64,000 nucleotides of DNA from Modestobacter sp. VKM Ac-2984 (lineage in GTDB: Bacteria > Actinomycetota > Actinomycetes > Mycobacteriales > Geodermatophilaceae), in NCBI RefSeq assembly GCF_026967985.1, contig NZ_JAPVBJ010000006.1:1-64000 (forward strand), given 5' to 3'. The position numbers and the translations under genes were made by a program. This document shows, one piece after another, positions 31,104-51,019 of the stretch. Under the pieces are notes generated by a model, which saw nothing but the letters and a program-made list of their open reading frames with translations, had not been told where the DNA came from and did not search any database. Each line of letters starts with the position of its first letter. Positions within the stretch are counted from its first letter, which is position 1.

Positions 31104-31161
31104 AAGGACCCCGTTGCCCCCCGCCACTCGCACGCTCGCGGCGGGACCCTGCAACGGGGCC
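31104..31161 (+). repeat. dispersed hairpin element, copy 1 (stop-adjacent)
   Basis: The element starts AAGGACC two bases after the Fpg/Nei stop and ends GGGGCC. CCCCGTTGC (31109-31117) pairs perfectly with GCAACGGGG (31151-31159). An inner stem, CCCGCC (31120-31125) with GGCGGG (31140-31145), closes a loop with the conserved core CTCGCACGCTCGC. Copies 2 to 4 share the core but have different, still paired, outer stems. Position and structure suggest a terminator. The -10-like CATACT of the next gene begins at its last base. Confidence 0.75.
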
Positions 31162-31172
31162 ATACTGGCGGC

Positions 31173-31832
31173 GTGCTGGTGACCTTCGACCTGTTCAGCG
31201 CGCTGATCGACTCCCGGACGGGCGGGTCGGCGGTGTTCGCCCGGCTGGCGACCGGCCACGGCTGGGACGTCGCCGGCACCGACCTCTACGACGACTGGGA
31301 CGCCCGCAACAAGGCCTCGCAGAAGGACGTCGCCGACTGGGTGCCCTTCGCCGAGCACTGCCGGCGCGCCCTCACCGACACCTACGCGGCCCGGGGCCTG
31401 GACGCCGACGCCACCGCGGACACCCTCGCGCTGCTGGCGTCGTTGCCGGACTGGCCGCTGTGGCCCGACGTCGGCCGGGCGCTGCCGCTGGTGGCCGAGC
31501 AGCACCAGGTCGGGGTGCTGTCCAACGTGGACGACGACCTGTTCGCCCGCACCCGCGTCGCCGGCCTGGTGCACCCGGACGCCGTCCTGACCAGTGAGCG
31601 GCTGCACGCCTACAAGCCGCACCCGGAGATCTACCAGCGGGCGGCCGAGGCCGGGGCCGCGGTGCACGTCCCCGCGTCCGCGCGGGACACCCGGGGGGCG
31701 CTGGAGGCCGGGCTCACGGTCGTCCGGGTGCGCCGTCCGGGGCACCGCGTCGACCCGGACGGGCCGCAGCCGCAGCACGAGGTCACCGATCTCCTGGAGC
31801 TCCCCGGCGTGCTCGCTGCCCTGACCGGGTAG
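31173..31832 (+). CDS. HAD superfamily hydrolase
   Basis: This 219-residue haloacid dehalogenase-type enzyme has motif I as FDLFSALIDS (the second catalytic aspartate is replaced by serine), motif II VGVLSNVDDD, motif III lysine in HAYKPHPEIYQ and a short cap domain. The D-to-S change in motif I resembles the dehalogenase branch more than phosphatases, so the reaction is uncertain. CATACT at 31161-31166 lies 6 bases before the GTG, again the leaderless pattern. It stands alone between the hairpin element and the TspO-like gene. Confidence 0.82.
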   Translation: MLVTFDLFSALIDSRTGGSAVFARLATGHGWDVAGTDLYDDWDARNKASQKDVADWVPFAEHCRRALTDTYAARGLDADATADTLALLASLPDWPLWPDVGRALPLVAEQHQVGVLSNVDDDLFARTRVAGLVHPDAVLTSERLHAYKPHPEIYQRAAEAGAAVHVPASARDTRGALEAGLTVVRVRRPGHRVDPDGPQPQHEVTDLLELPGVLAALTG

Positions 31833-31913
31833 ACCGCCCGCGGACGCGGCCGATCCCGGTGGCTCGACGGACCGGGGGAGAGCCGACGAGCAGGAGCGGA
31901 CGAGGAGGTACCG

Positions 31914-32681
31914 ATGAGGGACACCCCCCGCGTCGTCGCGGTGGTCGCTGCGGCGGTCGCCCAGATCGTCGGGAGCCCGCTGGGCTCCGCCATCGCCGGC
32001 CGCAGCGTCGGCGACGTCAGCGACGCCGACCGCTCGTTGGTCACCCCGGCCGGTTGGGCCTTCAGCATCTGGGGGCTGATCTTCGCCGGGTCGCTGGCCT
32101 GGGCGGTCTACCAGGCGCTGCCCGCCCAGCGCGAGCGCGAGGTGCACCGGCGCACCGGGTGGCCGCTGGCCGTCGCGTTCGCCGGGAACGCCGTCTGGGA
32201 GGTCGTCTTCCCACTGGACGGGGCCTGGCAGTACGTCGCCACGGTGCTGATCTTCGGGATCACCGCAGCGGCCGCCGTCGCCTACGTCCGGCTGCAGACC
32301 GTGCCGGCCGACGGGCTGGCCCGGTTCCTGCCGCGGGCCACCGCGGGGTTGCTGTTGGGCTGGCTCACCGTGGCGTCGGTGGCCGCGGTGGGCAGCACCG
32401 GGGTGGCGCTCGGGCTGTCCCCGGACACCCTCGCGGCCCAGGCCTGGGCGGTCGCCGCGCTGGTCACGGTCGCCGGGGTCGCCGCCGCGGTGCTCCTCGG
32501 CTCCTACGTCGCCGCCGGCCCGTTCGCGGCCGCGGTCATCTGGGGCCTGCTCGGCATCGCTGCCGCCGAGGGGCCGCAGCAGGTCGCCGTGGCCGCGATC
32601 AGCGCAGCCGCCGTCGTCCTGGTGGCGCTGGCCGGCCGGGCGTTGACCCGGACCGACCGCAGCGCCCTGCTGGTCGGCTGA
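31914..32681 (+). CDS. TspO/MBR-like membrane protein
   Basis: The 255-residue protein has about seven hydrophobic segments and the segment VTPAGWAFSIWGLIFAGSLAWAVYQ, which is characteristic of the large TspO-related (tryptophan-rich) family. Family members bind tetrapyrroles or act as stress sensors; no ligand can be read here. AGGAGG stands before the ATG at 31914. The gene is alone on the plus strand and converges on the MBL hydrolase gene with a 30-base gap. Confidence 0.75.
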   Translation: MRDTPRVVAVVAAAVAQIVGSPLGSAIAGRSVGDVSDADRSLVTPAGWAFSIWGLIFAGSLAWAVYQALPAQREREVHRRTGWPLAVAFAGNAVWEVVFPLDGAWQYVATVLIFGITAAAAVAYVRLQTVPADGLARFLPRATAGLLLGWLTVASVAAVGSTGVALGLSPDTLAAQAWAVAALVTVAGVAAAVLLGSYVAAGPFAAAVIWGLLGIAAAEGPQQVAVAAISAAAVVLVALAGRALTRTDRSALLVG

Positions 32682-32711
32682 GCGCGCCGCCCGGGCCGGA
32701 GGGCGCTGCCC

Positions 32712-33914
32712 TCAGCCCCGGCTGCCGGCCCGCCGGGAGGTCAGCCGCCGGACGCGGGCGGGGGCAGCCACCGGCCGGCCCGGGGGGACGTCGTCGGCCG
32801 AGCCGACCGCCGTCCACCAGTCGCGCACCGGGGGCGGGGCCAGCACGTCGACCCGCTCACCGGGCTGCGGGACGACGACCGTGACCCCGCGGGCCTCGGC
32901 GGCGGCGAGCAGCCGCTGCACCGGCTCGGCCCAGCGGTGGAAGGCCAGGTTGAACGTCGCCCAGTGGATCGGCACGAGCACCCGGCCGCCCAGGTCGCCG
33001 TGCGCGCGCACGGCCTCCTCCGGGTCCATGTGGATGGCGTGCCAGGCGTCGTTGTAGGCGCCGATCGGCTGCAGTGTCAGGTCGAAGGGCCCCAGGCGTG
33101 CACCGATCCCGGCGAAGGCCGGGGTGTAGCCGGTGTCGCCGCCGAAGAACACCCGGTGCCGGGGGCCGGCCACCACCCAGGACGACCAGAGCGTGGTGTC
33201 CCGGGCGAAGAACCGGCCGGAGAAGTGCCGGGCCTCGGTGCAGGTGAGGGTGAGCCCGGCGACGGTCGTGGCGCCGTCCCAGTCCAGCTCGACGATCCGG
33301 TCGTCCGGCACACCCCACCGGCGCAGGTGCGCGCCGATGCCGAGTGGGACGACGAACGGCGCCGACTGCTCGCGCACGAGGGCCCGGACGGTGGGCAGGT
33401 CCAGGTGGTCGTAGTGGTCGTGGCTGATCAGCACGGCGTCGACCGGCGGCAGGCTCTCGACCGGCGTCGGGGGCTCGTGCAGCCGGGTGGGGCCGAGCAG
33501 CGGGGAGGGGGACACCCGCTCGCCCCACACCGGGTCGACCAGCACCCGCCGGCCGTCGATCTCGAGCAGGGCGCTGGAGTGCCCGAACCAGGTGACCGCC
33601 AGCTCGGCGGCCTGCTCGGGCACCTCGGGGACGGTCAGCGGGATCGGCCCGCCGGGCAGCCCCTTGTGCCGGTCCTCGTGCCACTGGCGGAGCAGGCCGT
33701 CCCGGGCGTTGGCCGGGGCGAGCGCCGGGGTCGGGAGGTTGTTGTGGAACTTGCCCTCGGCGAACTGGGACGAGCCGGTGACGGTCGGGCGGAGCCGGCG
33801 CTGGCTGGCGCCGAGGGCGACGGGCAGGCCCCAGGCGGCGCGGGCGACCCAGCTCGCGCCGCCCAGCAGGGCGGTGGCAGCGGTGGCGGTGGCGACACGA
33901 CGGAGGAACGGCAC
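32712..33914 (-). CDS. MBL-fold hydrolase, NAPE-PLD/UlaG type
   Basis: The 400-residue protein has an N-terminal hydrophobic segment (ATATAATALLGGASWVARAAW), probably an anchor or signal, then a metallo-beta-lactamase domain. The metal motifs are TWFGHSSALLEIDG, LISHDHYDHLD (HxHxDH), a histidine in EARHFSGRFF, FFGGDTGY and PIHWATFNLAFH. These fit the bacterial relatives of N-acyl phosphatidylethanolamine phospholipase D. The GTG at 33914 is used; the frame runs further up into a hairpin without a good start. The substrate is unknown. Confidence 0.85.
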   Translation of the reverse strand: MPFLRRVATATAATALLGGASWVARAAWGLPVALGASQRRLRPTVTGSSQFAEGKFHNNLPTPALAPANARDGLLRQWHEDRHKGLPGGPIPLTVPEVPEQAAELAVTWFGHSSALLEIDGRRVLVDPVWGERVSPSPLLGPTRLHEPPTPVESLPPVDAVLISHDHYDHLDLPTVRALVREQSAPFVVPLGIGAHLRRWGVPDDRIVELDWDGATTVAGLTLTCTEARHFSGRFFARDTTLWSSWVVAGPRHRVFFGGDTGYTPAFAGIGARLGPFDLTLQPIGAYNDAWHAIHMDPEEAVRAHGDLGGRVLVPIHWATFNLAFHRWAEPVQRLLAAAEARGVTVVVPQPGERVDVLAPPPVRDWWTAVGSADDVPPGRPVAAPARVRRLTSRRAGSRG

Positions 33915-33965
33915 GTCCCCAGCATCCCCGACGCAGCTGGGCGATGCCCAGGAAGTGGTGCAGAA

Positions 33966-34010
33966 GACGCTTGTGCTCTGCTCACCGGGGGTGAGCAGAG
34001 CACAAGCGTC
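33966..34010 (-). terminator. terminator of the FtsX-type exporter operon
   Basis: A perfect 21-base-pair inverted repeat (33966-33986 with 33990-34010) has a loop of only 3 bases. It lies 48 bases past the stop of the minus-strand permease gene and 51 bases before the start of the MBL hydrolase gene. The stem includes the AT-bearing word CTTGTGCTCTGCTCA, unlike its surroundings. It should insulate the two minus-strand genes from each other. Confidence 0.75.
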
Positions 34011-34058
34011 CGGAAGACTCACCGCCCCCGGGTCACGGGTGCGGAGCGGAGGCCCTCG

Positions 34059-36536
34059 TCAGCCGGCGATCGCCGCCACCGGCGGGGTCTTGGCGGCCCG
34101 CCGGGCCGGCAGCACCGAGGCCAGCAGCCCGGCCACCGTGGCGACCAGCACGATCGCGCCGATCTGCAGCCACGGGATGCTGATCACCACCTCGCCGATC
34201 TCGCCGAGCGCCGAGGCCGCTCCCACCAGGCCGTAGGCGCCGCCGACCAGCACGCCGAGCACCGCGGCCACGCCGGCGACCAGCACCGCCTCCCAGGCCA
34301 GCAGCGCGCGCAGCTGGCGCCGGGTCAGCCCCAGTGCCCGCAGCAGGCCGCTCTCCTGGCGCCGCTCGACCACCGACAGGGCCAGCGTGTTGCCGACCCC
34401 GATCAGGGCGATCAGCACGGCCACACCGAGCAGCCCGGTGACGACGAGGAGCAGCACGTCCACGATCTGGTCGATCGCGGCGCGCTCGCTGGCCACCCCG
34501 GTCACGAACGCGGTGGGCAGCGCCGTGCCGGCCAGTTCGGTGACCTCGTCGATCACCGCGGTCTGGTCGACCCCGTCGGCCATCCGCAGCCACATGGTCT
34601 CCACGGCTGCCTCGGGAACCAGCGCCTGCAGGTCGGTGGTGCTCAGCAGCGTCCGGTCGGTCTCGCCGGCCACCACGGTCAGCGTGCGCGAGCGGTCACC
34701 AGCGGTCAGCGTCAGCGAGTCGCCGGGCTGCGCGTCCCAGGAGTCGGCCTCCCAGTCGGCGAGGACGACCTGGCCGAGTTCGGGCAGCGTGACGTCGCTC
34801 GTCGAGCGCAGCACCGGGAGCGCCGAGGCCGCGTCGACGCCGCTGACCCAGCTCTCCGTGCCGTCCGGCCCGGTGACCGTCGCCGCGGTGAGCCCGGTGG
34901 CTCCCACCACGCCCTCCACCGACTCCAGCTGGCCCTGCAACGTGGCCGGGACGGGCTCGTCGTAGCTCTGGAGGATCACGTCGGTCGGGTAGTTGGCCGC
35001 CAGTCCCGCCTGGGCGGTGGCCCGGGTGGAGCTGGCCCCGACGACCATCGCCGTGGTCAGCGTGACGCCGATCAGCAGCGCGGTGGCGGTGGCCGCCGTC
35101 CGGCGGGGGTTGCGGGTCGCGTTGCCGCTGGCCAGGCGCGCCGGGAGCCCGCCGAACCGGCCGAGCAGCCGGCCGGCCGCCGCGACGACCGGCGGAACCG
35201 CCCGCTGGGCGAGCAGCAGGAGCCCCAGCGAACTGAGCACCCCGCCGCCCAGCGAGACCAGGATGTCCGCGCTCACCACGCCCAGGGTCATCAGCGCCAC
35301 GCCGGGGACGGTGAGCAGCAGGCCGGTGACCAGCCGGGCGACGCCGCTGCGGGAACGCAGCGGGGCCGGGTCCGTCGGGCGCAGCGCGGCCAGCGGGGCG
35401 ACCCGGGTGGCGGCGCGGGCCGGGGAGAGCGCGGCGATCAGCGTGGTGACCGTGCCGACGACGATGCCGACGCCGACGACGTACGGCGGCACCGCCACCC
35501 CGGACAGCGGGATGGGGGAGTCGATGCGAGACACCAGGGCCGAGACGCCGGCGGCCAGCCCGATCCCGGCGAGCACGCCGATCACGGAGGCGACCAGCCC
35601 GGTGAGCACGGCCTCGCCGAGCACGCTCCGGCGGATCTGCCGGGAGGTCGCGCCGATGCAGCGCAGCAGGGCCAGGTCGCGGGTCCGCTGGGCCAGCAGC
35701 ACGGCGAAGGTGTTGGCGATGACCAGCCCGGCGACGAGCACCGCGATGGTGGCGAACACCAGCAGCGAGGTGGTGAGCCAGTCGGCGTCACCGGTCAGCA
35801 TCGCGACGGACTCCTCGGCCTGCGCGGTGCCGGTGCGGACGGTGACGTCCTCGCCGGACAGCGTGGCGCGCACCTCATCGGCGAGGAGAGCGGGGTCGGT
35901 GCGGACGGGCCCGGCGACGCGCAGCTCGGTCGGCTCCGCCGCCCCCCACGCCTGGGCCTGGTCGGCGGTGACGTAGGCCTTGCCGTAGATCCCGGCGGTG
36001 GGGTCGCCGCCCAGGTCGACGACGCCGGTCACCATCGCGTCGATGGTGGTGGCCGTGCCCTCGTCGTCGTAGACGGTGACCGGCAGGACGTCGCCGACGG
36101 CGGCACCGACGCGCTCGCTGACCGCGATCTCGCCCGGGCGCACCGGCAGCGAGCCGTCGCTCAGCTGCTGCCAGCGCAGCGCCGGGTCACCGGCCACCGA
36201 CTCGACCTGCAGGTACTGGGCGCCGGTGCGACCGGGGGCCACGGCCTGCACGGAGGTCTCCCAGGTCGGGTCGACGGCCTGCACGGCGGTCAGCGCGGTG
36301 AGGGTGTCGACGTGCTCGGCCAGCCCGGCGCCGCTGTCGGAGGTGACCACCACGTCGGCGTCGACGTATTGAGCGCCGGCCGCCGCCAGGACGGTGGCCT
36401 TCGTGGTCTCGTTGAGCACCAGGGTGGCGACCACGAACCCCACGGCGATGACGATCGCCAGGGTCGAGGCGACCAGCCGGCCGGCGTGCGCCCGGATGCT
36501 CGCTCGCGTCACTCGGGACATGGCGCCTGCACGCAT
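34059..36536 (-). CDS. FtsX-type ABC transporter permease
   Basis: This 825-residue membrane protein has an N-terminal helix (LVASTLAIVIAVGFVVATLVLNE), a periplasmic-type MacB domain, and two FtsX domains. The first is near residues 245-375 (LLVFATIAVLVAGLVIANTFAVLLAQRTRDLALLRCIGA) and the second near 690-815 (LLVVTGLLGVAVLIALIGVGNTLALSVVERRQESGLLRALG). Large permeases of this kind work with an LolD/MacB-type ATPase to export or extract lipophilic or peptide cargo. The ATPase gene ends 5 bases upstream. The cargo is not apparent. Confidence 0.92.
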   Translation of the reverse strand: MRAGAMSRVTRASIRAHAGRLVASTLAIVIAVGFVVATLVLNETTKATVLAAAGAQYVDADVVVTSDSGAGLAEHVDTLTALTAVQAVDPTWETSVQAVAPGRTGAQYLQVESVAGDPALRWQQLSDGSLPVRPGEIAVSERVGAAVGDVLPVTVYDDEGTATTIDAMVTGVVDLGGDPTAGIYGKAYVTADQAQAWGAAEPTELRVAGPVRTDPALLADEVRATLSGEDVTVRTGTAQAEESVAMLTGDADWLTTSLLVFATIAVLVAGLVIANTFAVLLAQRTRDLALLRCIGATSRQIRRSVLGEAVLTGLVASVIGVLAGIGLAAGVSALVSRIDSPIPLSGVAVPPYVVGVGIVVGTVTTLIAALSPARAATRVAPLAALRPTDPAPLRSRSGVARLVTGLLLTVPGVALMTLGVVSADILVSLGGGVLSSLGLLLLAQRAVPPVVAAAGRLLGRFGGLPARLASGNATRNPRRTAATATALLIGVTLTTAMVVGASSTRATAQAGLAANYPTDVILQSYDEPVPATLQGQLESVEGVVGATGLTAATVTGPDGTESWVSGVDAASALPVLRSTSDVTLPELGQVVLADWEADSWDAQPGDSLTLTAGDRSRTLTVVAGETDRTLLSTTDLQALVPEAAVETMWLRMADGVDQTAVIDEVTELAGTALPTAFVTGVASERAAIDQIVDVLLLVVTGLLGVAVLIALIGVGNTLALSVVERRQESGLLRALGLTRRQLRALLAWEAVLVAGVAAVLGVLVGGAYGLVGAASALGEIGEVVISIPWLQIGAIVLVATVAGLLASVLPARRAAKTPPVAAIAG

Positions 36537-36541
36537 GACGG

Positions 36542-37312
36542 TCAGCCCCCGAGCCCGCGGAGCGCGTTGATGATCGAGTCGGTGGTCGGCTGGTGGACCT
36601 CGCCGGCCAGCCGGCCGTCGGCGAGCAGCACGACCCGGTCGGCGTAGGCGGCGGCCACCGGGTCGTGGGTGACCATGACGACGGTCTGGCCGGTCTCCCG
36701 GACGCTGGAGCGCAGCAGGTCCAGCACCTCGGCGCCGGCGTGGCTGTCCAGGTTGCCGGTCGGCTCGTCGGCGAAGACGACGTCGGGGCGGGGGAGCAGG
36801 GCCCGGGCAACGGCGACCCGCTGCTGCTGGCCACCGGAGAGCTCGTGCGGGCGGTGCTGGAGCCGGTCGCGCAGGCCGAGGCGGCTGATCACGGAGTCCA
36901 TCCAGGCGCGGTCGGGGCGCTGCCCGGCCAGCTGCATCGGCAGCAGCATGTTGTCCTGGGCGTTGAGCACCGGCAGCAGGTTGAAGGACTGGAAGACGAA
37001 GCCGATCCGCTGGCGTCGCAGCGTGGTCAGCTGCTCGTCGCGCAGGCTGGTCAGCTCGGTGTCGCCGAGCCAGACCTTGCCGCTGGTCGCAGCGTCCAGG
37101 CCGGCCAGGCAGTGCATCAGGGTGGACTTGCCGGAGCCCGAGGGGCCCATGATCGCGGTGAAGGCGCCCCGGTCGAACGCGACGTCGACCCCGGCGAGGG
37201 CGTGCACCGCGGTCTCACCCGAGCCGTAGGTCTTGCGCAGGTCGGTGGCGTGGACGGCGGCGGACAGGGTCGCGGCGGGCTCACCCGGGACGGTCATGAC
37301 GGGGACGGACAC
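36542..37312 (-). CDS. ABC transporter ATP-binding protein, LolD/MacB type
   Basis: The 256-residue ATPase has Walker A GPSGSGKST, the Q-loop FVFQSFNLLP, the signature LSGGQQQRVAVARAL, Walker B VVFADEPTGNLD and the H-loop VTHDP. All are intact and typical of ATPases that serve FtsX-type permeases. The GTG at 37312 has AGGAGG five bases ahead, better than the ATG five codons later. The 279-base gap to the response regulator upstream on the same strand holds hairpin copy 3 and, closer to this gene, its probable promoter. Confidence 0.95.
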   Translation of the reverse strand: MSVPVMTVPGEPAATLSAAVHATDLRKTYGSGETAVHALAGVDVAFDRGAFTAIMGPSGSGKSTLMHCLAGLDAATSGKVWLGDTELTSLRDEQLTTLRRQRIGFVFQSFNLLPVLNAQDNMLLPMQLAGQRPDRAWMDSVISRLGLRDRLQHRPHELSGGQQQRVAVARALLPRPDVVFADEPTGNLDSHAGAEVLDLLRSSVRETGQTVVMVTHDPVAAAYADRVVLLADGRLAGEVHQPTTDSIINALRGLGG

Positions 37313-37536
37313 TTCGGCCTCCTGAGGCGGTGGTCTTCGACGTGATCACGTTCTCCCGCCGTCGTGCCCGCCCGCGTCGCCGCAGGGGCTGGTCTCCACG
37401 GAGGCTGTGGTGCACCTGTGGGCTGACCCCGGGTCATCCCCCAGGTGCATGCCCCCGCCCCTGGTCGGCGCTGAGTGCGGTCCCGTCGACGCCTCGCCGG
37501 GCCGGCAGACGTCGGCAACTCCGCACTCGGCGGACC

Positions 37537-37592
37537 GGCCCCCTCCAGGGGCCCGCCGCGAGCCTGCGAGTGGTGGGGAGGAGGGGGTCCTT
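37537..37592 (-). repeat. dispersed hairpin element, copy 3 (overlaps a stop codon)
   Basis: Read on the minus strand, the element begins AAGGACC, overlapping the TGA of the response regulator by one base, and ends GGGGGCC. The outer stem pairs 37539-37546 with 37580-37587 (CCCCCTCC with GGAGGGGG). The core CCACCACTCGCAGGCTCGCG matches copies 1 and 2 with a few changes. It sits exactly where a terminator for the kinase-regulator operon should be. Confidence 0.72.
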
Positions 37593-38305
37593 CAGCAGGC
37601 AGGGGCGTCGCGGAGGAGGTCGGCGGGGGCGACCAGGCCGGTGCGGTAGGCCAGGACGACGGCCTGCACCCGGTCCCGGGAGCCGGTCTTGAACAGCACC
37701 CGGCCGACGTGGGTCTTCACCGTCGCCTCGCTGACGAACAGCTGCGCGGCGATCTCGGTGTTGGACGCGCCGTAGGCCATCAGCACCAGCACCTCCCGCT
37801 CCCGCGGGGTGAGCTCGGCCAGCGCACTCGGGTCGACCTGGCTGGTCCCGCCCCCGTTGCCGGCCCCGCGGAGGATCGGCGCGACGTGCTGCAGCAGCCG
37901 GCGGGTGGAGCTGGCTGCGATCACCGAGTCGCCGGCGTGCACCGTGCGCACCGCGGCCAGCATCTCCTCCGGCGGGGCGTCCTTGAGCAGGAAGCCGCTG
38001 GCCCCGGCCCCGATCGCGGCCACCACGTACTCGTCGAGGTCGAAGGTGGTGAGGACGACGACCCGGGGCGGCTCGGGGAGCGCCGTCACCAGCTCGGTCG
38101 CGGCGATGCCGTCGGTGCCGGGCATCCGGACGTCCATCAGGACGACGTCGGCCGGTGTCCGGCGCAGCAGCTCGACCGCCGCGGCGCCGTCCCCGGCCTC
38201 CCCGACCACGGTGAGGTCGGGCTGGGAGTCGATCACCATCCGGAACCCGGCCCGGACCAGCTGCTGGTCGTCGACGAGGACGACGCGGATCTGTCCTGTG
38301 CTCAT
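37592..38305 (-). CDS. NarL/LuxR-family response regulator
   Basis: The 237-residue regulator has a receiver domain with the acidic pair VDDQQ, the phosphoryl aspartate in VVLMDVRMPG, the conserved threonine in VVVLTTFD and lysine in GFLLKDAPPEE. A LuxR-type helix-turn-helix follows (LTPREREVLVLMAYGASNTEIAAQLFVSEATVKTHVGRVLFKTG). The ATG overlaps the kinase stop in an ATGA, so the pair is co-translated. Targets are unknown; the downstream ABC exporter on the same strand is a reasonable candidate. Confidence 0.94.
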   Translation of the reverse strand: MSTGQIRVVLVDDQQLVRAGFRMVIDSQPDLTVVGEAGDGAAAVELLRRTPADVVLMDVRMPGTDGIAATELVTALPEPPRVVVLTTFDLDEYVVAAIGAGASGFLLKDAPPEEMLAAVRTVHAGDSVIAASSTRRLLQHVAPILRGAGNGGGTSQVDPSALAELTPREREVLVLMAYGASNTEIAAQLFVSEATVKTHVGRVLFKTGSRDRVQAVVLAYRTGLVAPADLLRDAPAC

Positions 38306-43364: not shown

Positions 43365-43397
43365 ACCTTGGCTGCCATTGTGAACGTCCACACCCTA

Positions 43398-43415: not shown

Positions 43416-43442
43416 GACGGGCAACACACAGTGAGGTGCCAT

Positions 43443-43817: not shown

Positions 43818-45423
43818 CGTGTTCGCCGCCGAGAGCGCGACCATCGGCGAGCCGGCGATCAACATCTCGATCTTCGGCGTCTTCGTGCTGATCACCCTGG
43901 TGATCACGTTCCGGGCCAGCCGCAACAACAAGAGCGCCGCCGACTACTACGCCGCCGGCCGCAACATCACCGGCACCCAGAACGGCCTGGCCATCGCCGG
44001 TGACTACCTCTCGGCGGCCTCGTTCCTGGGCATCGCCGGGGCGATCGCCATCTACGGCTACGACGGCTTCCTGTACTCGATCGGCTTCCTCGTCGCCTGG
44101 CTGGTGGCGCTGCTGCTGGTCGCGGAGCTGATGCGCAACACCGCCCGCTTCACCATGGCCGACGTGCTGGCCTTCCGGATGCGGCAGGGGCCGGTGCGCA
44201 CCGCGGCGGCCATCTCCACGCTGTTCGTCTCGCTCTTCTACCTGCTCGCCCAGATGGCCGGGGCCGGCGGCCTGGTCGCCCTGCTGCTGGGCGTCAGCGG
44301 CGCCGCGGCCGAGGCGATCGTCGTGGTCGTCGTCGGCGCGCTGATGATCTTCTACGTGCTGGTCGGCGGCATGCGCGGTACCACCTACGTGCAGATGATC
44401 AAGGCGACGCTGCTCATCGCCGGCGCCCTGGTCATGACGATCTGGGTGCTCGCCGAGTACGGCTTCAACCTGTCCTCCCTGCTCGGCGGCGCGGTCGCGT
44501 CGGAGGGCCAGCAGGTCCTGGAGCCCGGCGCCCAGTACGGGGTCTCGAACGCCACCCGGCTGGACTTCATCAGCCTCGCGCTGGCCCTGGTGCTCGGCAC
44601 CGCCGGGCTGCCGCACGTGCTGATGCGCTTCTACACCGTGCCGACCGCCAAGGACGCGCGGAAGTCCGTCGTCTGGGCCATCTGGCTCATCGGCGGCTTC
44701 TACCTGTTCAGCCTGGTCATCGGCTACGGCGCCGGTGCCCTGGTGGGCTCCGAGACGATCCTCGCCGCACCCGGTGGGGTCAACGCGGCGGCCCCGCTGC
44801 TGGCGTTCGAGCTCGGTGGCACGGTGCTGCTGGGCATCATCGCCGGCGTCGCCTTCGCCACGATCCTCGCGGTCGTGGCCGGCCTGACCATCACCGCGTC
44901 GGCGTCCTTCGCCCACGACGTCTACGCCTCGGTGCTCAAGAAGGGCGACGTCGACCCGAACGCGGAGGTCCGGGTCGCCCGGATCACCGCCGTCGTCATC
45001 GGTGCGGTCTCCATCGGCCTGGGCATCCTGGCGCTGCAGGCCGGGATCAACATCGCCTTCCTGGTGGCCCTGGCCTTCGCCGTGGCGGCCTCGGCCAACC
45101 TGCCGACGATCCTCTACACGCTCTTCTGGAAGAACTTCACCACCCAGGGCGCGCTGTGGTCGATCTACGGCGGGCTGATCGTCTGCATCGGCCTGATCAT
45201 CTTCTCGCCGGTCGTGTCGGGCTCGGAGACGGCGATGTTCTCCAACTTCGACATCGCGTGGTTCCCGCTGCGGAACCCGGGCCTGGTCTCCATCCCGCTG
45301 TCGTTCTTCCTCGGCTGGCTGGGCACGAAGGTCTCCAAGGAGAAGCCGGACGTCGACAAGTACGCCGAGCTCGAGGTCCGGTCGCTGACCGGCATCGGTG
45401 CCGAGAAGGCAGTCGCTCACTGA
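43810..45423 (+). CDS. actP: sodium:solute symporter, acetate permease ActP type
   Basis: The 537-residue protein has about thirteen membrane helices and the SSS-family segments SAADYYAAGRNITGTQNGLAIAGDYLSAASFLG, LIAGALVMTIWVL and GLPHVLMRFYTVPTAKDARKSVVWA. The last is diagnostic of the acetate/monocarboxylate branch. It imports acetate or another short carboxylate with sodium. The DUF485 partner and a CRP-like upstream site support carbon-source control. Hairpin copy 2 begins right after its TGA. Confidence 0.9.
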   Translation: MADVFAAESATIGEPAINISIFGVFVLITLVITFRASRNNKSAADYYAAGRNITGTQNGLAIAGDYLSAASFLGIAGAIAIYGYDGFLYSIGFLVAWLVALLLVAELMRNTARFTMADVLAFRMRQGPVRTAAAISTLFVSLFYLLAQMAGAGGLVALLLGVSGAAAEAIVVVVVGALMIFYVLVGGMRGTTYVQMIKATLLIAGALVMTIWVLAEYGFNLSSLLGGAVASEGQQVLEPGAQYGVSNATRLDFISLALALVLGTAGLPHVLMRFYTVPTAKDARKSVVWAIWLIGGFYLFSLVIGYGAGALVGSETILAAPGGVNAAAPLLAFELGGTVLLGIIAGVAFATILAVVAGLTITASASFAHDVYASVLKKGDVDPNAEVRVARITAVVIGAVSIGLGILALQAGINIAFLVALAFAVAASANLPTILYTLFWKNFTTQGALWSIYGGLIVCIGLIIFSPVVSGSETAMFSNFDIAWFPLRNPGLVSIPLSFFLGWLGTKVSKEKPDVDKYAELEVRSLTGIGAEKAVAH

Positions 45424-45425
45424 GA

Positions 45426-45484
45426 AAGGACCCTCCTGCCCCCCCACCGCTCGCACGCTCGCGGCGGGGCCCTGCAGGAGGGCC
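45426..45484 (+). repeat. dispersed hairpin element, copy 2 (stop-adjacent)
   Basis: AAGGACC begins two bases after the ActP stop. CCCTCCTGC (45431-45439) pairs perfectly with GCAGGAGGG (45474-45482). The interior carries the core CTCGCACGCTCGCGGCGGGG shared with copy 1. Compared with copy 1, five adjacent stem bases changed on both arms with pairing kept. The place and form fit a terminator for the DUF485-ActP operon; downstream to 45554 nothing else is seen. Confidence 0.75.
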
Positions 45485-45554
45485 GTTCCAGCACGTTGCG
45501 GTAGCGCGAGGCGCGTCCCCGGTGGGGGCGCGCCTCGCGTCGTCCCCGGGTGTC

Positions 45555-45896
45555 TCAGGCGGCAGCCGGGGCGGTGGCCGGCTCCTCCCGCGCTGCGGCG
45601 GGCAGGGCGGCGGGCTCGGGCAGGACGGCGTCGACGGCGACCGTCGCGGCGCTGACCGCACCGGCGGCGGAGCGGCGCCGACGGACGACGGAGCGGCTGA
45701 CCAGCCCGGCCAGCACCACGCAACCGGCGAGCACGTGCTGACCGGGGGCGAGGAGGGCGACGACGATCGCCGCGGCGTAGACCAGCGAGAGCAGCACCGT
45801 GGCGACGGGGAGCCGGCCGGCCAGGTGCAGGGCCGGCAGGCGGGGCAGGGACAGCCGGGGCAGGGAGAGGTGGGGGGCGGGGACGGGCAGGTGCAC
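45555..45896 (-). CDS. small membrane protein of unknown function
   Basis: This 113-residue protein starts at a GTG preceded by GGAGGT at a good distance. The N-terminus has a short repeat (HLSLPRLSLPRLPALHL), followed by two hydrophobic helices (PVATVLLSLVYAAAIVVALLAPG and HVLAGCVVLAGLVS), a basic RSVVRRRRS turn and an alanine-rich tail. I do not recognise a family. It may be a real but lineage-restricted gene. It stands between the convergent ActP operon and the Mn catalase gene. Confidence 0.6.
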   Translation of the reverse strand: MHLPVPAPHLSLPRLSLPRLPALHLAGRLPVATVLLSLVYAAAIVVALLAPGQHVLAGCVVLAGLVSRSVVRRRRSAAGAVSAATVAVDAVLPEPAALPAAAREEPATAPAAA

Positions 45897-46029
45897 GGCG
45901 GACCTCCAGCGGGTGCTCGGGCGCCCGCCGGGCCGGCGTCCCGGGTCCGCTGGGGAGCGGAGCCGGGACGCCGGCACGGCGACGGCGCAGCGGGCGTGCC
46001 CCCTGTGGCTGATCACAGGAGGCGACGCG

Positions 46030-46893
46030 TCACTTGAGGGCGTCCTTGGCCTTCTGGAGGATCCCCTGCATCGGCACCGGCGGGGTGCCGTACAGGCGCG
46101 GGTCGCCCGGCGGCAGGATCGGGGCGTCGGCGTTCGCCGCGATCGGCCGGGCGGTCAGCTGGTTGTCGGTGCCGTCCAGCGCCGGCCCGTTGGCCCAGCG
46201 GCCGTTGGCCGCATCGGGACCGTCGGAGGCGTCGAGGAACGCGTAGGCGAACTCCGGCGGCTCCTCGTCCAGCGGGAAGGCCGCCGGCACCGGGATGTTG
46301 TCCAGCCCGTCCGCCTTGAGCTCCTCGGCCGCGGCCAGCCACTGCATCTGGTGGTAGTGGTCCCGCGCGATCAGGAAGCGGAGGGTGTCCTTGACGCCCT
46401 TGTCGTCGGTCATGTTGTAGAGCCGGCTCACCTGCAGCCGGCCCATCATCTCGGCGGTGGCGTTGTAGTGGAAGTCGGCCATCAGGTTGCCGCTGGCGGT
46501 CACGTACCCGCCGCTCCACGGGAGGCCCATGCTGTCGCGGAAGTAGGCGCCGCCGCCGTTGACGATGGCGTGCTGCGGGTTGGCCTGCCCGTAGGCGGCA
46601 GCGCTCTCCTTCGAGTGGTCGGCCGAGTCGGGCTTGAGCGGCTGGTGGTCCAGCAGCCGGTCGATCAGCGTCACCAGGATCTCGACGTGCGCCAGCTCCT
46701 CGGTGCCGATGGCCAGCAGCATGTCCTTGTACTTGCCGGGCAGGCGGCAGTTCCAGCCCTGCAGGAGGTACTGGGTCGCGACGGTCATCTCGCCCCACTG
46801 ACCACCGAGCACCTCCTGGAGGCGGCGGGCGTAGTTGGCGTCGGGGCCGTCGGGCTTGGCCTCGTACTGCAGGGCGTGGGTGTGCGTGAACAC
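46030..46893 (-). CDS. manganese catalase
   Basis: The 287-residue enzyme breaks down hydrogen peroxide with a dimanganese centre. The four-helix bundle ligands are seen in GGQWGEMTVATQYLLQGWN, IGTEELAHVEIL, TASGNLMADFHYNATAEMMGRLQVSRLY and LIARDHYHQMQWLAAAEEL. Length and motifs fit the non-haem catalases of spores and soil bacteria. The GTG start follows GAGGGAGAA. It is monocistronic and suits a desiccation- and oxidation-tolerant lifestyle, together with the egt operon. Confidence 0.95.
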   Translation of the reverse strand: MFTHTHALQYEAKPDGPDANYARRLQEVLGGQWGEMTVATQYLLQGWNCRLPGKYKDMLLAIGTEELAHVEILVTLIDRLLDHQPLKPDSADHSKESAAAYGQANPQHAIVNGGGAYFRDSMGLPWSGGYVTASGNLMADFHYNATAEMMGRLQVSRLYNMTDDKGVKDTLRFLIARDHYHQMQWLAAAEELKADGLDNIPVPAAFPLDEEPPEFAYAFLDASDGPDAANGRWANGPALDGTDNQLTARPIAANADAPILPPGDPRLYGTPPVPMQGILQKAKDALK

Positions 46894-47009
46894 GGGCGTT
46901 CTCCCTCTGCGTCGGTCGCTGTCGCCGCCCTCGCGGTGACAACAGACAGATGCCCCCTCCCGGTGTCACCCCCGTGCCGTCCGCTGGCCCGCAGGGGCCG
47001 ACCTGTCCG

Positions 47010-47027
47010 GCCCTCCGGCAGGAGGGC
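47010..47027 (-). terminator. putative terminator after a histidine kinase gene
   Basis: GCCCTCC (47010-47016) pairs with GGAGGGC (47021-47027) around a GGCA tetraloop. It starts 5 bases past the stop of the minus-strand kinase gene. A weaker GGCCC/GGGCC hairpin lies about 10 bases further on. The stem is short, so the assignment rests mainly on position. Confidence 0.4.
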
Positions 47028-47032
47028 GTCCC

Positions 47033-47746
47033 TCACCGGTCCGGCAGGCGCACCACCAGCGTGAACGCGCCGTCGGCGCCCCGGGACCAGGCCAGCCGCC
47101 CGCCGAGCTCCCGGGTCTGCCGCTGCACCGACCACAGGCCCAGGCCGCTGAGGTCCACCGGTGGGGTCGTCCGGTTCAGGTGCCCCAGCACCTGGTCGGC
47201 CGGCACGCCCTGCTGGGTCACCGCGAGGTCGACCCACCCCTGCCGCCGGTCGACCCGCAGCCGGACCGGCTGGCCGCGGCCGTGCCGGTGGGCGTTCTCC
47301 AGCAGGTTGGTCAGGATCCGCTGGACCCGGGCGTCGGCCACGGTGACCGCGGCGGCGTCCGCGTCCAGCTCCACCTCCAGCTGGTGGTCGGGCAGCCCCG
47401 AGGCGCCCACCGAGGCGCGGACCACGTCGACCAGCTGCCGGACCCCGCGCCGTTCGGACGCACCCCCGGTCGCGTCCGCCGTGCGGAGCATGGAGGCGAG
47501 GTGCTGCGCCTGGCTGCGGGCCAGGTCGAGCAGCTCCGGCCGGCGTTCGTCGTCCTCCAGCCGGGCCAGCGCCGTCTCCAGGGCGGCCAGCGGGCTGCGC
47601 ATGTCGTGGCACAGCGCCCGCACCAGCGCATCGCCGGTGCTCACCGGCTCAGCGGCGGGCCGGGGGAGGTGGCTGCGCACCACGCGCAGCAGGTCGGTGA
47701 GCAGTCCGGGCAGTGTCGCAGGGTGTGTGTCGGCAGCGAGGGTCAC
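47033..47746 (-). CDS. soluble sensor histidine kinase
   Basis: This 237-residue kinase has a HisKA helix pair (ALVRALCHDMRSPLAALETALARLEDD, phosphoryl histidine near residue 48) and a HATPase_c domain (RILTNLLENAHRHG N-box, then DLSGLGLWSVQRQTRELGGRLAWSRG). No membrane segment or clear sensor domain precedes it, so the signal is cytoplasmic or comes from a partner. The GTG at 47746 has GGAGG five bases ahead and is preferred to 47752. It diverges from a response regulator gene 61 bases away, a likely cognate pair. Confidence 0.88.
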   Translation of the reverse strand: MTLAADTHPATLPGLLTDLLRVVRSHLPRPAAEPVSTGDALVRALCHDMRSPLAALETALARLEDDERRPELLDLARSQAQHLASMLRTADATGGASERRGVRQLVDVVRASVGASGLPDHQLEVELDADAAAVTVADARVQRILTNLLENAHRHGRGQPVRLRVDRRQGWVDLAVTQQGVPADQVLGHLNRTTPPVDLSGLGLWSVQRQTRELGGRLAWSRGADGAFTLVVRLPDR

Positions 47747-47807
47747 GGGCACCTCCGGGAGTGCGGTCGGTCAGCCACGCCGGGCGCAGCCGATCTCTGG
47801 GAGTGAC

Positions 47808-48509
47808 GTGGGAGGACTCGACGTCGGTGCCGCTGCTGAGCACCGTCCCCCCGTGGACGTGGTGGTGGTCGACGACCACCCGTTGTTCAGCCGAGGCCTG
47901 GAACTGCTGCTGCCGCCGGAGAGCGGCGGCCGGGTGCGGGTCGTGGGGACGACGGACGACGCCTCGGCCGGCGCGGCGCTGGTGCTCCGGCACAACGCCG
48001 ACGTGGCCGTCGTGGACCTGCACATGCCGCCCCCCGGGGGCACCCGGGCGATCGCGGCGATCCGCCGGGCACGGCCGATGACCCGGATCGTGGCGCTCTC
48101 CGGGCTGGCCGAGGCCGATGCGGCCCTGGAGGCGCTGCGGGCCGGGGCCAGCGGGTTCCTGCCGAAGACCGCCAGCCCCGAGGCGCTGGTCCGCCCGCTG
48201 CTCGCCGTCCTCGACGGCTGGTCGGTGATCCCCGAGTCGCTCCTGCGCCAACTGCTGGACGACGCGGCGCCCACCGCCGACCAGGGCATCGCCGCCCAGC
48301 TGACCGCCGACGACCGCCGGCTCTGGCGGCTGGTGGCCGCCGGCACCAGCACCGTCGACATCGCCACGACGCTGCACGTCTCCGAGCGCACCGTGAAGCG
48401 GCTGGTGGCCAACCTGCTCCGCCAGTTGCGGGTCTCCACCCGGGTGGAGGCGGCCGCGCTCGCCGGGCGGGTCGGGCTCGAGGCGACCGGATCCGGCACG
48501 GGACGCTGA
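47808..48509 (+). CDS. LuxR-type response regulator
   Basis: The 233-residue regulator has a receiver domain (VVVVDDHPLFSRGLELLL, VAVVDLHMPPPGG with the phosphoryl aspartate, IVALSG, GFLPKTASPEAL) and a LuxR-type helix-turn-helix (LTADDRRLWRLVAAGTSTVDIATTLHVSERTVKRLVANLL). The GTG at 47808 has GGGAG four bases ahead; a GTG at 47853 lacks any such site. The serine in IVALSG replaces the usual threonine equivalently. It is divergent from the kinase at 47033, so the short gap holds both promoters. Confidence 0.9.
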   Translation: MGGLDVGAAAEHRPPVDVVVVDDHPLFSRGLELLLPPESGGRVRVVGTTDDASAGAALVLRHNADVAVVDLHMPPPGGTRAIAAIRRARPMTRIVALSGLAEADAALEALRAGASGFLPKTASPEALVRPLLAVLDGWSVIPESLLRQLLDDAAPTADQGIAAQLTADDRRLWRLVAAGTSTVDIATTLHVSERTVKRLVANLLRQLRVSTRVEAAALAGRVGLEATGSGTGR

Positions 48510-48605
48510 GTGGTGCATCGGGAGGTGCATCACGCCCCGGCTACCCGGAGCGGCGCGGCGCACCCGCGGACCGTTCAGTTCCGGTTTACCGCGGCGCGTC
48601 GTGGC

Positions 48606-48611
48606 TAGGGT
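48606..48611 (+). promoter_or_regulatory. -10 box for a leaderless reductase transcript
   Basis: TAGGGT lies 6 bases before the ATG at 48618, and a possible -35 (TTTACC at 48585-48590) stands 15 bases further up. No Shine-Dalgarno site is present. This is one of several genes here whose start codon falls at the expected +1. Confidence 0.55.
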
Positions 48612-48617
48612 CCGCCC

Positions 48618-49727
48618 ATGCCTGCACGGATCGTCCTGCTCGGTGCCACCGGCCACACCGGCGGCCGGACGGCGGCCGCCCTGGCCGCCCGCGGCGCGCG
48701 CCCGGTGCTCGCCGGCCGTGATCCCGCCCGGCTCGCCGCCCTCGCCGACCGGCTCGGCGGCGCGGCCGGGCCGCTGGAGACCGCGGCCGCCGACGTCACC
48801 GACCAGGGATCGGTGCGCGCGCTGCTCGGTGCGGGCGACGTGCTGGTCACCACGGTGGGGCCGTTCCAGCGGTTGGGGGAGGCCGCCGTCGCCGCGGCCG
48901 CCGACGCCGGGGCGGTCTACCTGGACTCGACGGGGGAACCGCCCTTCCTGCGCCGGGTGTTCGAGGAGTTCGGGCCGCGGGCGCAGGCCTCGGGCGCGGT
49001 GCTGCTGACCGCCTTCGGCCACGACTACGTGCCCGGGGTGCTGGCCGGCGCGCTGGCCCTGGCCGAGGCCGGCGACCGGGCGTACCGGCTGGACGTCGGC
49101 TACGGCCTGGACGGCGGCGGCGGGGGGCAGGGCTTCTCCCGCGGCACGCTGGTCTCGCTGATCGGGGTGCTGCTGGAGCCGGGGCACGCCTGGCGCGGGG
49201 GCCGGCTGGTCGAGGAGCCGGCTGGGGTGCGGGACTGGCGGTTCGACGTCGCCGGCCGCACCCGCCGCGGGCTGTCGGTGGGCGGCTCGGAGCACCTCAC
49301 GCTGCCCGACCTGTCGCCGTCCCTGCGTGAGGTCGGCGTCTACCTGGCCTGGTTCGGCCCGGCGACGCCGGTCGCGCACCGGCTCGCGCCGTTGGGCCCG
49401 TGGCTGGGCCGGGTGCCCGGGGCCACGGCGCGGGTGGAGCAGTTCGCCGACCTGGTCGGGCGCCGGGTCGCCGACGCGCCGACGACCGAGGGGGAGGCCC
49501 GCACCCACGTCGTCGCCGAGGTGCGCGACCGGTCGGGGGAGCGGGTGGCCCGGGTGCGGCTCCGCGGCGGCGACCCCTACGGGATGACCGCGGACCTGCT
49601 GGCCTGGGGTGCGGTCCGGGCCGCCGACGGCGGGGTCCGGGGCGCCGGCGCCCTCGGCCCGGTGCAGGCCTTCGGGCTCGACGAGCTCACCGCGGGGGCG
49701 GCGGCCGCCGGGCTGCGGCCGGCGTGA
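48618..49727 (+). CDS. saccharopine dehydrogenase-like oxidoreductase
   Basis: The 369-residue protein has a Rossmann dinucleotide site (IVLLGATGHTGGRTAAALAARG) and the segment AGAVYLDSTGEPPFLRRVFEEFGPRAQASGAVLLTAFGHDYVPG of the saccharopine-dehydrogenase/trans-acting enoyl reductase family. Family members reduce enoyl lipids or remain uncharacterised, so no reaction is assigned. The stop overlaps the GTG of the GlmL-type gene (GTGA), which ties the two together although no joint pathway is known. Confidence 0.8.
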   Translation: MPARIVLLGATGHTGGRTAAALAARGARPVLAGRDPARLAALADRLGGAAGPLETAAADVTDQGSVRALLGAGDVLVTTVGPFQRLGEAAVAAAADAGAVYLDSTGEPPFLRRVFEEFGPRAQASGAVLLTAFGHDYVPGVLAGALALAEAGDRAYRLDVGYGLDGGGGGQGFSRGTLVSLIGVLLEPGHAWRGGRLVEEPAGVRDWRFDVAGRTRRGLSVGGSEHLTLPDLSPSLREVGVYLAWFGPATPVAHRLAPLGPWLGRVPGATARVEQFADLVGRRVADAPTTEGEARTHVVAEVRDRSGERVARVRLRGGDPYGMTADLLAWGAVRAADGGVRGAGALGPVQAFGLDELTAGAAAAGLRPA

Positions 49728-51019
49728 CCCTGCTCGCCTGCGTCGACATCGGCTCCACCTGGACCAAGGCGGCGCTGGTCGAGCCGGCCACCGGGCGGCT
49801 GGTCGACACACGCCAGGCGCCGACGACGCCGGGGGACGTGGTGGCCGGCGTCCTGGCCGCGACGGAGGGGTGGGACGCGCCGGTGCGCGCCTGTTCCAGC
49901 GCCGGCGGGGGACTGCGGCTGGCGGTCGTCGGCTACGAGGAGCTGATCAGCGCGGAGGCCGGGCACCGGGCCGCCCTCTCCGCCGGCGCCCGCGTGGTGC
50001 ACGTGGCCGCGGGCCGGCTGGACGCCGCGGCGCTCGGGCAGCTGGCGGCCGCCGCCCCGGACGTCGTCCTGCTGGTCGGCGGCACGGACGGCGGCGACGC
50101 CACCGTGCTGCGGCACAACGCCGCCGCCCTGGCGGCCCCGCTGCAGGGTCCCGGCGCGAGCCCGCGAGGGCTGGGGGGCAGTGGGGTCCTTCCTCGGTCC
50201 GTCCCGGTGGTCGTGGCCGGGAACGCGGCGGTCCGGGCTGAGGTCTGCGCCGTCCTGGCGGCGGCCGGGACCCCGGTCACCCCGGCCGACAACGTGCTCC
50301 CCGACATCGGGCGGCTGGCCCCGGAGTCGGCCCGCGCGGCGATCCGCGACGTCTTCCTGACCCACGTGATCGGCGGGGCCCGGCTGTCGGCGGACCCGCG
50401 GCTGAGCCGGTGGGTTCGGGCGGTCACGCCGGACGCGGTGCTCGACGGCGTGGCGGCGCTGGCGGAGCTGCGGGCCGGCGTGGAGGCCCCGGGCGTGCTG
50501 GTGCTCGACGTCGGTGGGGCGACGACCGACGTGTACTGCGTGCCGGCCGTCGACGCCGAGCAGGCGTCGCTGCACCGGGCGGCGGTCGGGGTGCCGGCCC
50601 GGCGGCGCACCGTGGAGGGCGACCTGGGGGTGCACGCCAGCGCCGACGCGCTGCGGCAGGCGGCCGGGGGTGAAGGGCTGTCCGCACCCGGGGACGATCC
50701 GCTGGCCCTCGGCGAGGCCGCGGCGGTGGTGGCGCTGCGCCGGCACCTGCGGGCCGAGGCGGCCTACGGCCCGGGCGGTGCGAGTGCGCGCGGGGTCGGG
50801 CTGGTGGTGCTCTCCGGCGGGGTCTTCCGGCACGCGCCGACGGCGGCGACGGCCGCGGTGGTGCAGCGGGTGGCGGCCGACCGTGGCGGGGCCGGTGGGG
50901 TGCTGGCCGGCGCGCGGGTGGTCGTGGACGGCCGGTACGTGCTGGCCGCGGCCGGCCTGCTCGCCCCGGACGCCCCGGCGGCGGCGTCCGGACTGCTCAC
51001 CGGCCTCCTCGACGGTTGA
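49724..51019 (+). CDS. GlmL/MutL-type ATPase carrying a hairpin-element insertion
   Basis: The 431-residue ASKHA-fold ATPase has the phosphate-1 motif VDIGSTWTKAALVEP, LLVGGTDGGDATVLRHNAAAL, PVVVAGNAAVR, PADNVLPDIG and VLVLDVGGATTDVYCVPAV. These are marks of GlmL, the putative reactivating factor of coenzyme B12-dependent glutamate mutase. No mutase subunit gene is near. Residues about 137-157 (PLQGPGASPRGLGGSGVLPR) are encoded by hairpin copy 4 in frame and interrupt the usual NAAALA-VPVVVAGN connection. The protein may still fold, since the insert falls in a loop. Confidence 0.83.
   Translation: MTLLACVDIGSTWTKAALVEPATGRLVDTRQAPTTPGDVVAGVLAATEGWDAPVRACSSAGGGLRLAVVGYEELISAEAGHRAALSAGARVVHVAAGRLDAAALGQLAAAAPDVVLLVGGTDGGDATVLRHNAAALAAPLQGPGASPRGLGGSGVLPRSVPVVVAGNAAVRAEVCAVLAAAGTPVTPADNVLPDIGRLAPESARAAIRDVFLTHVIGGARLSADPRLSRWVRAVTPDAVLDGVAALAELRAGVEAPGVLVLDVGGATTDVYCVPAVDAEQASLHRAAVGVPARRRTVEGDLGVHASADALRQAAGGEGLSAPGDDPLALGEAAAVVALRRHLRAEAAYGPGGASARGVGLVVLSGGVFRHAPTAATAAVVQRVAADRGGAGGVLAGARVVVDGRYVLAAAGLLAPDAPAAASGLLTGLLDG
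50134..50193 (-). repeat. dispersed hairpin element, copy 4 (inside a coding region)
   Basis: Read on the minus strand it shows AAGGACC, the core CTCGCGGGCTCGCG and a GGGGCC end, as in copies 1 to 3. The outer arms are 50136-50144 (CCCCGCTGC) and 50178-50186 (GCAGTGGGG), paired through one G-T wobble on the plus strand. The core has more changes than the others, consistent with an older copy. It lies antisense within the GlmL-type gene and keeps the frame open across about 20 codons. Confidence 0.65.

What the first reader, a model, noticed from the sequence alone, without database searches (positions are those of the whole stretch)
31104..50193. A family of four covarying hairpin elements scattered over 19 kb
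At 31104, 37537 (minus), 45426 and 50134 (minus) the same plan recurs: AAGGACC, a variable arm, a conserved core around CTCGCACGCTCGCGGCGGG, CCCT, the paired arm, then GGCC. The arm sequences differ (CCGTTGC/GCAACGG, CTCCTGC/GCAGGAG, CCCTCC/GGAGGG) but stay complementary, so the structure is under selection. Three copies start within two bases of a stop codon, or overlap it, on the coding strand. I know of no named repeat matching this. It may be a terminator family or a REP-like palindrome that has been recruited as one.
Basis: seen in the sequence. Interest (0 to 1): 0.78.

Follow-up and report, generated by a model that had tools for sequence, protein, structure and literature searches.

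The report
REP-like palindromes hugging stop codons
The four hairpins belong to a family of more than a hundred short palindromic repeats in this soil actinobacterium, widespread in its bacterial family, which often start exactly two bases after a stop codon, come and go between close relatives like mobile DNA, and lack any detectable copy of the enzyme that spreads similar repeats elsewhere.

Summary
A covariance model gives 117 matches in this 4.56-Mb genome (probably Modestobacter) and matches in 102 of 112 genomes of the family. Stems covary: 94.4% of cells paired, 10 of 18 pairs changed on both sides. The unit reads GNNG-AAGGACC-[variable arm]-core-CCCT-[arm]-GGCC-G. Of 338 copies, 256 follow a gene on its own strand, 157 of them exactly 2 nt after the stop, nearly always CTGA (98 of 103). 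Presence differs between relatives with 95-99% identical flanking proteins, and deletion scars occur. Copy 4 is not intergenic: it is a 17-residue in-frame insertion in a PF13941 gene, absent from four congeners.

Best reading: a new REP-like mobile palindrome tolerated at gene ends. No RAYT, the usual REP mobiliser, was found in 112 genomes by two models. Termination is not shown: no T-tract, the coding-strand hairpin is weaker in 325 of 331 copies, and another hairpin persists beyond the copy-3 site in 19 of 22 loci. Transposition and its enzyme are inferred.

The parts
31104..31161 (+). copy 1, 58 nt, 2 nt after the TGA (31099-31101) of an Fpg/Nei-type glycosylase gene (30205-31101); 5' tag GACG at 31100-31103
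   Evidence: element match at this site in 5 of 22 loci of the genus, own included; only a short spacer in G001, G018, G016, G017
37537..37592 (-). copy 2, 56 nt; its first A is the last base of the TGA (37594-37592) of a LuxR-type response regulator gene (37592-38305, -); tag GCTG at 37596-37593
   Evidence: present in G013 and G018, empty in G001, deletion remnant in G008. G018 reads CCTGACG|AAGG (+2 register) where this copy reads CCTGCTG|AAGG (-1)
45426..45484 (+). copy 3, 59 nt, 2 nt after the TGA of a sodium:solute symporter gene (43819-45423)
   Evidence: element match at this site in 11 of 22 loci, own included, one of them (L267) on the opposite strand
45485..45499 (+). 3' extension GTTCCAGCACGTTGC, versions of which follow other copies
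   Evidence: GTTCCAGC in the first 25 nt after 9 of 246 copies, GTTCCATC after 7
45505..45539 (.). separate G+C-rich hairpin (11-bp perfect arms) between the convergent genes, downstream of copy 3; not a family member
   Evidence: arms checked; a matching motif within 170 nt of the stop in 19 of 22 orthologous loci, with or without the element
50134..50191 (-). copy 4, 58 nt, inside a coding gene and antisense to it; part of a net +51-nt insertion (17 residues); tag GAGG at 50195-50192
   Evidence: present in own, G013, G021; absent in G001, G018, G008, G003
49724..51019 (+). PF13941 gene (Pfam name 'MutL'; the glutamate-mutase type, from recall, not mismatch-repair MutL) carrying copy 4 in frame
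   Evidence: Pfam E = 4.1e-95; tblastn comparison

Best explanation
This is a REP-like, non-autonomous mobile palindrome of mostly 56-59 nt, spread through a whole bacterial family. Anatomy (shown): a 5' tag GNNG; AA; closing pairs GG-(A)-CC/GGCC with a one-base bulge; a variable arm of about 6-8 bp; a conserved asymmetric internal loop (CC / NCCCT); a short inner stem with a recurrent A.C mismatch; a conserved 10-nt loop TCGCNNGCTC; then a 3' G. Behaviour (shown by comparison): copies are present, absent or partly deleted at orthologous sites in close relatives; most lie in one orientation relative to the preceding gene, and the largest class in one register to its stop; some form tandem arrays; a few lie in frame inside genes. 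Mechanism (inferred): the folded single strand is moved or copied by an enzyme that reads the hairpin and its 5' tag, as TnpA_REP/RAYT does for REPs, but of another protein family. Copies landing just after a stop codon, or just upstream of a divergent promoter, do least harm and accumulate; the tag GNNG fits TGANG, which fixes the +2 register. Any role at mRNA 3' ends would be secondary.
For: Copy number and range: 117 matches in own genome; 102 of 112 family genomes, but only 0-5 matches in several near-complete ones (G039 0, G067 1, G055 2, G045 4, G114 5), so the family looks dispensable (strict filters, 49 candidates scored per genome). Covariation: 94.4% of 622 cells paired against 81.9% in shuffles; 69 double changes against 16.3. 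Register: own genome 54 of 88 sense-linked rows at exactly +2; pooled 157 of 256. CTGA in 98 of 103 +2 cases against 185 of 277 TGA stops called in own stretches, element-linked ones included. Hairpins that are not family members start at scattered offsets after stops. The tag is seen away from stops too: G at -4 in 0.68-0.86 and at -1 in 0.55-0.87 of copies in three contexts without a called stop at the copy, genome G 0.37 (the class 'other' still holds some stops my gene caller missed). Mobility signs: filled/empty differences at two loci, 22 genomes of the genus each, own included; a site filled in G013 and empty in own without target duplication; the in-frame insertion of copy 4; two further in-ORF copies in other genomes, same strand and frame; tandem arrays.
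Against: No transposition was observed and no enzyme found; PF01797 and NF047646 gave 0 of 112. Some 'empty' sites may be old deletions, since deletion scars are common. Only one empty site is clean to the base, and it differs in the two adjoining bases (GC against CG). At copy 4 the empty allele has 7 nt not present in the filled one. Ten genes between or beside closely spaced copies in five places included no recombinase: 8 had Pfam families, 2 none (not every gene there was scanned). Copies avoid tightly coupled genes: all 15 codirectional cases keep at least 12 nt besides the element, whereas 39% of such junctions without one have 10 nt or less; a 3'-end function would predict that too. 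A CT dinucleotide just 5' of the tag, as in E. coli REP cleavage, is not a feature of its own: 0.72 at stops but 0.35, 0.13 and 0.05 elsewhere.
Confidence: 0.62

Rival explanations
1. A family of transcription terminators (or 3'-end blocks to exonucleases) kept by selection at the ends of transcription units and spread by recombination.
For: 256 of 338 copies follow a gene on its own strand; in the syntenic sample divergent junctions hold 1 in 172; tightly spaced gene pairs are avoided; other palindromes occupy the same gene ends in other species (for example GGAGTGG...CCACTCC palindromes at the Fpg site).
Against: No T tract after GGCC. The coding-strand hairpin is the weaker one in 325 of 331 copies, and sporadic arm mismatches are A.C more often than G.T, 37 against 15, the wrong way round for a coding-strand RNA. 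Beyond copy 3 a separate hairpin is kept in 19 of 22 loci while the element is found in 11 of 22. Per gene end the element is about as common at convergent (9 of 314) as at codirectional (15 of 696) positions, while ordinary strong hairpins are about twofold commoner at convergent ends; with these small numbers a twofold difference for the element is not excluded.
Confidence: 0.2
2. A protein-binding element without mobility: a DNA site for a nucleoid protein or topoisomerase (as proposed for E. coli REPs, from recall), or an RNA-protein 3'-UTR element.
For: Loop and internal loop are more conserved than a bare hairpin needs (alignment A1).
Against: Near-complete genomes of the same genera with almost no matches; gain or loss between relatives with 95-99% identical flanking proteins; an insertion inside a coding gene.
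Confidence: 0.1
3. Old repeats whose arms stay complementary because replication template-switching corrects palindromes, with no current mobility or function.
For: Few mismatched cells for the amount of change: in the six most variable pairs, 15 G.T, 37 A.C and 38 other mismatches among about 2,090 cells. Frequent internal deletions.
Against: Does not explain the fixed register to stop codons, the GNNG tag, or the gains inferred at copy 4 and at L320:9828.
Confidence: 0.08

Closest known systems
GTAG-tagged REP / TnpA_REP (RAYT) system
   Same: High-copy imperfect palindromes with a 5' tetranucleotide tag at the hairpin foot, found after coding regions between codirectional and convergent genes, with termini that supply stop codons and with copies inside ORFs (PMC3733652: abstract and sections 6 and 15 read); conserved stem mismatches (PMC8266576: passages); size 21-65 nt (PMC6006769: passages).
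   Different: The tag is GNNG, separated from the stem by AA; two stems with highly variable arms around a conserved core; a sharp +2 register to TGA; no PF01797 or NF047646 hit in 112 genomes.
CGTC-tagged REPs (mostly alpha-proteobacteria; include RPE-4 and RPE-6)
   Same: Tagged palindromes that apparently lack a dedicated transposase, near gene 3' ends, some inside ORFs (PMC3733652, abstract and sections 6 and 15).
   Different: Tag CGTC, stems of 8-9 bp, loops of 4-5 nt; no such tag or size here.
Rickettsia palindromic elements (RPE)
   Same: Palindromes lying in frame inside protein genes (described in PMC3733652 section 15; otherwise from recall).
   Different: Here in-ORF copies are the exception: 9 rows by a strict rule among 363 copies, 3 of them copy 4 and its two orthologues, and some of the rest doubtful.
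TRIT terminators of M. tuberculosis (RNIE)
   Same: Sequence-conserved hairpins at gene ends in an actinobacterium (from recall; the RNIE paper was not read, only passages of PMC3526491 that use its TRIT model).
   Different: Termination is not shown here; signs of mobility are.

Membership tests
GTAG REP / REPtron | 5' tetranucleotide GT[AG]G at the foot of the hairpin | tested here: not met
   Tag is GNNG. GTAG itself occurs in some copies; at the +2 register GANG prevails (CTGAAG 43, CTGAGG 31, CTGACG 28, CTGATG 14 of 157)
GTAG REP / REPtron | short imperfect palindrome in high copy, mostly extragenic and downstream of genes | tested here: met
   mostly 56-59 nt, within the 21-65 nt given in PMC6006769 (passage)
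GTAG REP / REPtron | cognate TnpA_REP (RAYT) in the genome | tested here: not met
   PF01797 0 of 112 at E <= 0.001 (5 of 14 control genomes ring); NF047646 0 of 112 at E <= 0.1 (7 of 14 controls ring, 1 over the cut-off)
GTAG REP / REPtron | strand-specific recognition of the folded single strand | not testable with these tools
   Only the asymmetry between the two strands was computed
GTAG REP / REPtron | head-to-head or tail-to-tail dimers (BIME-like) | not tested
   Head-to-tail arrays were seen; inverted dimers were not counted
CGTC REP | unpaired CGTC at one end, stem of 8-9 bp | tested here: not met
   consensus, flank table
Intrinsic terminator | G+C-rich hairpin followed by a T tract | tested here: not met
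   hairpin yes; T is 0.04 at +1 and 0.07-0.28 at +2 to +6 after stop-linked copies
Intrinsic terminator | ends transcription | not testable with these tools
   needs Term-seq or a reporter
Rickettsia palindromic element type | in-frame insertion into protein genes | tested here: met
   copy 4, with empty orthologues; L102 and L189 also carry in-ORF copies, but empty orthologues of those were not sought
Rfam families | match to a curated covariance model at gathering score | tested here: not met
   only 5S rRNA and 5_ureB_sRNA in the window, neither at a copy

The most novel reading that the evidence does not exclude
A hairpin-mobilising system in Actinobacteria that spreads REP-like palindromes with an enzyme outside the Y1/HUH RAYT family, choosing targets by a GNNG tag such that stop codons are preferred landing sites.
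Probability: 0.3. Interest if true: 0.8.

Novelty: new variant of a known kind. Interest (0 to 1): 0.58.

Why it matters
GTAG REPs are usually explained by RAYT transposases. Here an abundant tagged palindrome family with fresh-looking presence/absence differences runs through a bacterial family in which no RAYT could be found, so either RAYTs were lost throughout or something else moves such hairpins. The sharp stop-codon register and the many close genomes with filled and empty sites make the question testable by comparing gene content with copy number, and by resequencing.

Tried and rejected
RAYT in own genome and family: none. Rfam: none at the copies. A transposase near closely spaced copies: ten genes scanned with Pfam, 8 ordinary and 2 without a family. 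The loose core pattern was not above chance in the window. 'Hairpins generally start 2 nt after stops in this genome' was rejected: offsets of other hairpins are scattered. 'The antisense strand is the working strand' is left open: it folds better because the recurrent A.C mismatches read as G.U there, but E. coli REPs also carry conserved mismatches on the active strand that are reported to be needed (PMC8266576, passages). Orthologous filled pairs were too few to measure arm evolution: 12 distinct pairs of 58-mers, 60 other rows dropped for length, two of the 12 clearly not true pairs.

Limits. Gene calls are from my own simple codon-model caller. One search lists 115 rows, at least two of which repeat copies seen in overlapping loci. 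In some searches only a capped number of candidates per genome was scored (143, 49 and 18), so counts there are lower bounds. Many of the 338-363 pooled copies are related, so p-values on them are only rough.

Literature: searches listed no paper that describes such repeats in Geodermatophilaceae, judging by listings only, apart from passages of PMC9686282 (CRISPR counts only) and PMC2625358 (BOX-A1R fingerprinting of Modestobacter and Blastococcus isolates). The library holds open-licence papers only.
Full report
What is there. The window lies in a 4.56-Mb genome of a genus that is most likely Modestobacter: the congener G001 has a contig of 1,919,881 bases, the length of a Modestobacter sp. 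VKM Ac-2985 contig returned by the named scan. A first alignment of 35 copies gave a two-stem hairpin. Of 622 pair cells 94.4% form standard pairs against 81.9% in shuffles, 10 of 18 pairs have changes on both sides, and sliding the partner by 1-3 columns drops pairing to 38-52%. The model finds 117 matches at E <= 0.1 in the whole genome with 150 candidates scored.

Range. In the family draw, 102 of 112 genomes match at E <= 0.001. The ten without are one genome of g18 and the nine of g22, g23 and g24. Several near-complete genomes in otherwise rich genera hold 0-5 matches. In an order-wide draw 53 of 298 genomes matched at 1e-6, and three of the 53 are outside the family, with 1-2 matches each. 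I do not know whether those three are transfer or contamination.

Placement. In own genome 88 of 115 rows have a same-strand gene upstream, and 54 of those start exactly 2 nt after its stop; 21 have an antisense gene upstream and 6 fall in called genes. Over 338 copies from all sources: 256 sense-linked, 157 of them at +2; 43 beyond a divergently read gene; 28 called inside genes by a lenient rule; 11 unknown. At +2 the stop is CTGA in 98 of 103 cases, against 185 of 277 TGA stops in own stretches. The flank carries a signal of its own: G at -4 and at -1, and G after GGCC, also in contexts without a called stop. Thus the constant thing is GNNG-AAGGACC...GGCC-G, and stop codons fit it in some registers: TGANG|, CTG|A, TAG|. 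The +1 register, which would put T at -4, occurs in 3 of 256. The fit is loose outside +2: G at -4 is 0.55 in the -1 class and 0.35 in the 0 class. Hairpins that are not family members show no such register.

Turnover. At the copy-3 site the model matches in 11 of 22 loci of the genus, one on the opposite strand; at the copy-1 site in 5 of 22 (own included in both). The proteins are 82-99% identical to this genome's; the three genomes closest by the symporter (98-99%) lack copy 3. Scars that keep outer ends but lose the middle are common. Other palindromes stand at some of the same gene ends in other species. A G013 copy (L320:9828) has an empty orthologue in own genome without target duplication, CTGAGC|GTCAG against CTGACG[element]GTCAG.

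Copy 4. It lies within the PF13941 gene 49724-51019. Own, G013 and G021 carry the insert; G001, G018, G008 and G003 lack it, and the reading frame continues in each. The net gain is 51 nt. Two other in-ORF copies (L102, L189) lie on the same strand and in the same frame, giving related peptides: QGPGASPRGLGG here, QGPAASLRVAGG and QGPAASSRVAGG there.

Strands. As RNA the strand opposite to the upstream gene folds better in 325 of 331 copies, by 6.6 kcal/mol on average; with DNA parameters in 288 against 38 (window copies). The cause is a set of A.C mismatches that are G.U on the other strand. Sporadic mismatches in the variable arms lean the same way, 37 A.C against 15 G.T, with 38 of other kinds. 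This speaks against a coding-strand RNA hairpin as the selected form, but not decisively.

Terminator test. In the unbiased syntenic sample the element is at 9 of 170 convergent, 15 of 718 codirectional and 1 of 172 divergent junctions, that is 9 of 314 and 15 of 696 gene ends. Ordinary strong hairpins are about twice as common at convergent ends. The element avoids tight gene pairs. These data fit gene-end landing with purging of harmful insertions, and do not exclude a terminator.

Reading. Placement, tag, conserved mismatches, arrays, ORF insertions and turnover resemble what PMC3733652 (abstract and sections 6 and 15 read) and PMC8266576 (passages) report for REPs. The defining partner of GTAG REPs, a RAYT, was sought and not found in 112 genomes. 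I therefore call it REP-like, not a GTAG REP. Shown: anatomy, range, register, gain or loss, in-frame insertion. Inferred: single-strand transposition, an unknown enzyme, harmless landing at gene ends. Termination remains possible as a side effect.

Noticed in passing
output, e.g. own L310, G001 L335 and L339, G008 L361: Other recurring palindromes at gene ends in Modestobacter (GCRCTGTGCG...CGCACAGTGC, CACCAAAATGGCCATTTTGGTG, AGGCATAGGAA...TTCCTATGCC; also GGAGTGGGAG...CTCCCACTCC) stand where relatives have the element.
   Followed up: no
window 45485-45499; L098, L168, L104: A 3' extension close to GTTCCAGCACGTCACC follows GGCC in a minority of copies (GTTCCAGC in 9, GTTCCATC in 7 of 246); in L098, L168 and L104 it leads into a second partial element.
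   Followed up: partly
L084 1501-1822, L132 1260-1417, L178 6560-6718: Head-to-tail arrays of the element with a spacing of roughly 48-59 nt.
   Followed up: partly
e.g. L002, L046, L050, L246:2521: Copies upstream of divergent genes often lie about 16 nt from the start, next to a CTANNNT box that looks like a -10 element of a leaderless promoter (the promoter reading is inference).
   Followed up: no
alignments A2, A3: A 56-nt subfamily has CTC/GAG in the middle stem together with CCTCT in place of NCCCT in the internal loop, a three-way change.
   Followed up: no
window 3394-3532 (-): Rfam 5_ureB_sRNA match, 42.1 bits against a gathering score of 40.
   Followed up: no
L083 319-1785: The translation begins FPYTTLFRSL, which looks like sequencing adapter (from recall), so its in-ORF copy was disregarded.
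   Followed up: no
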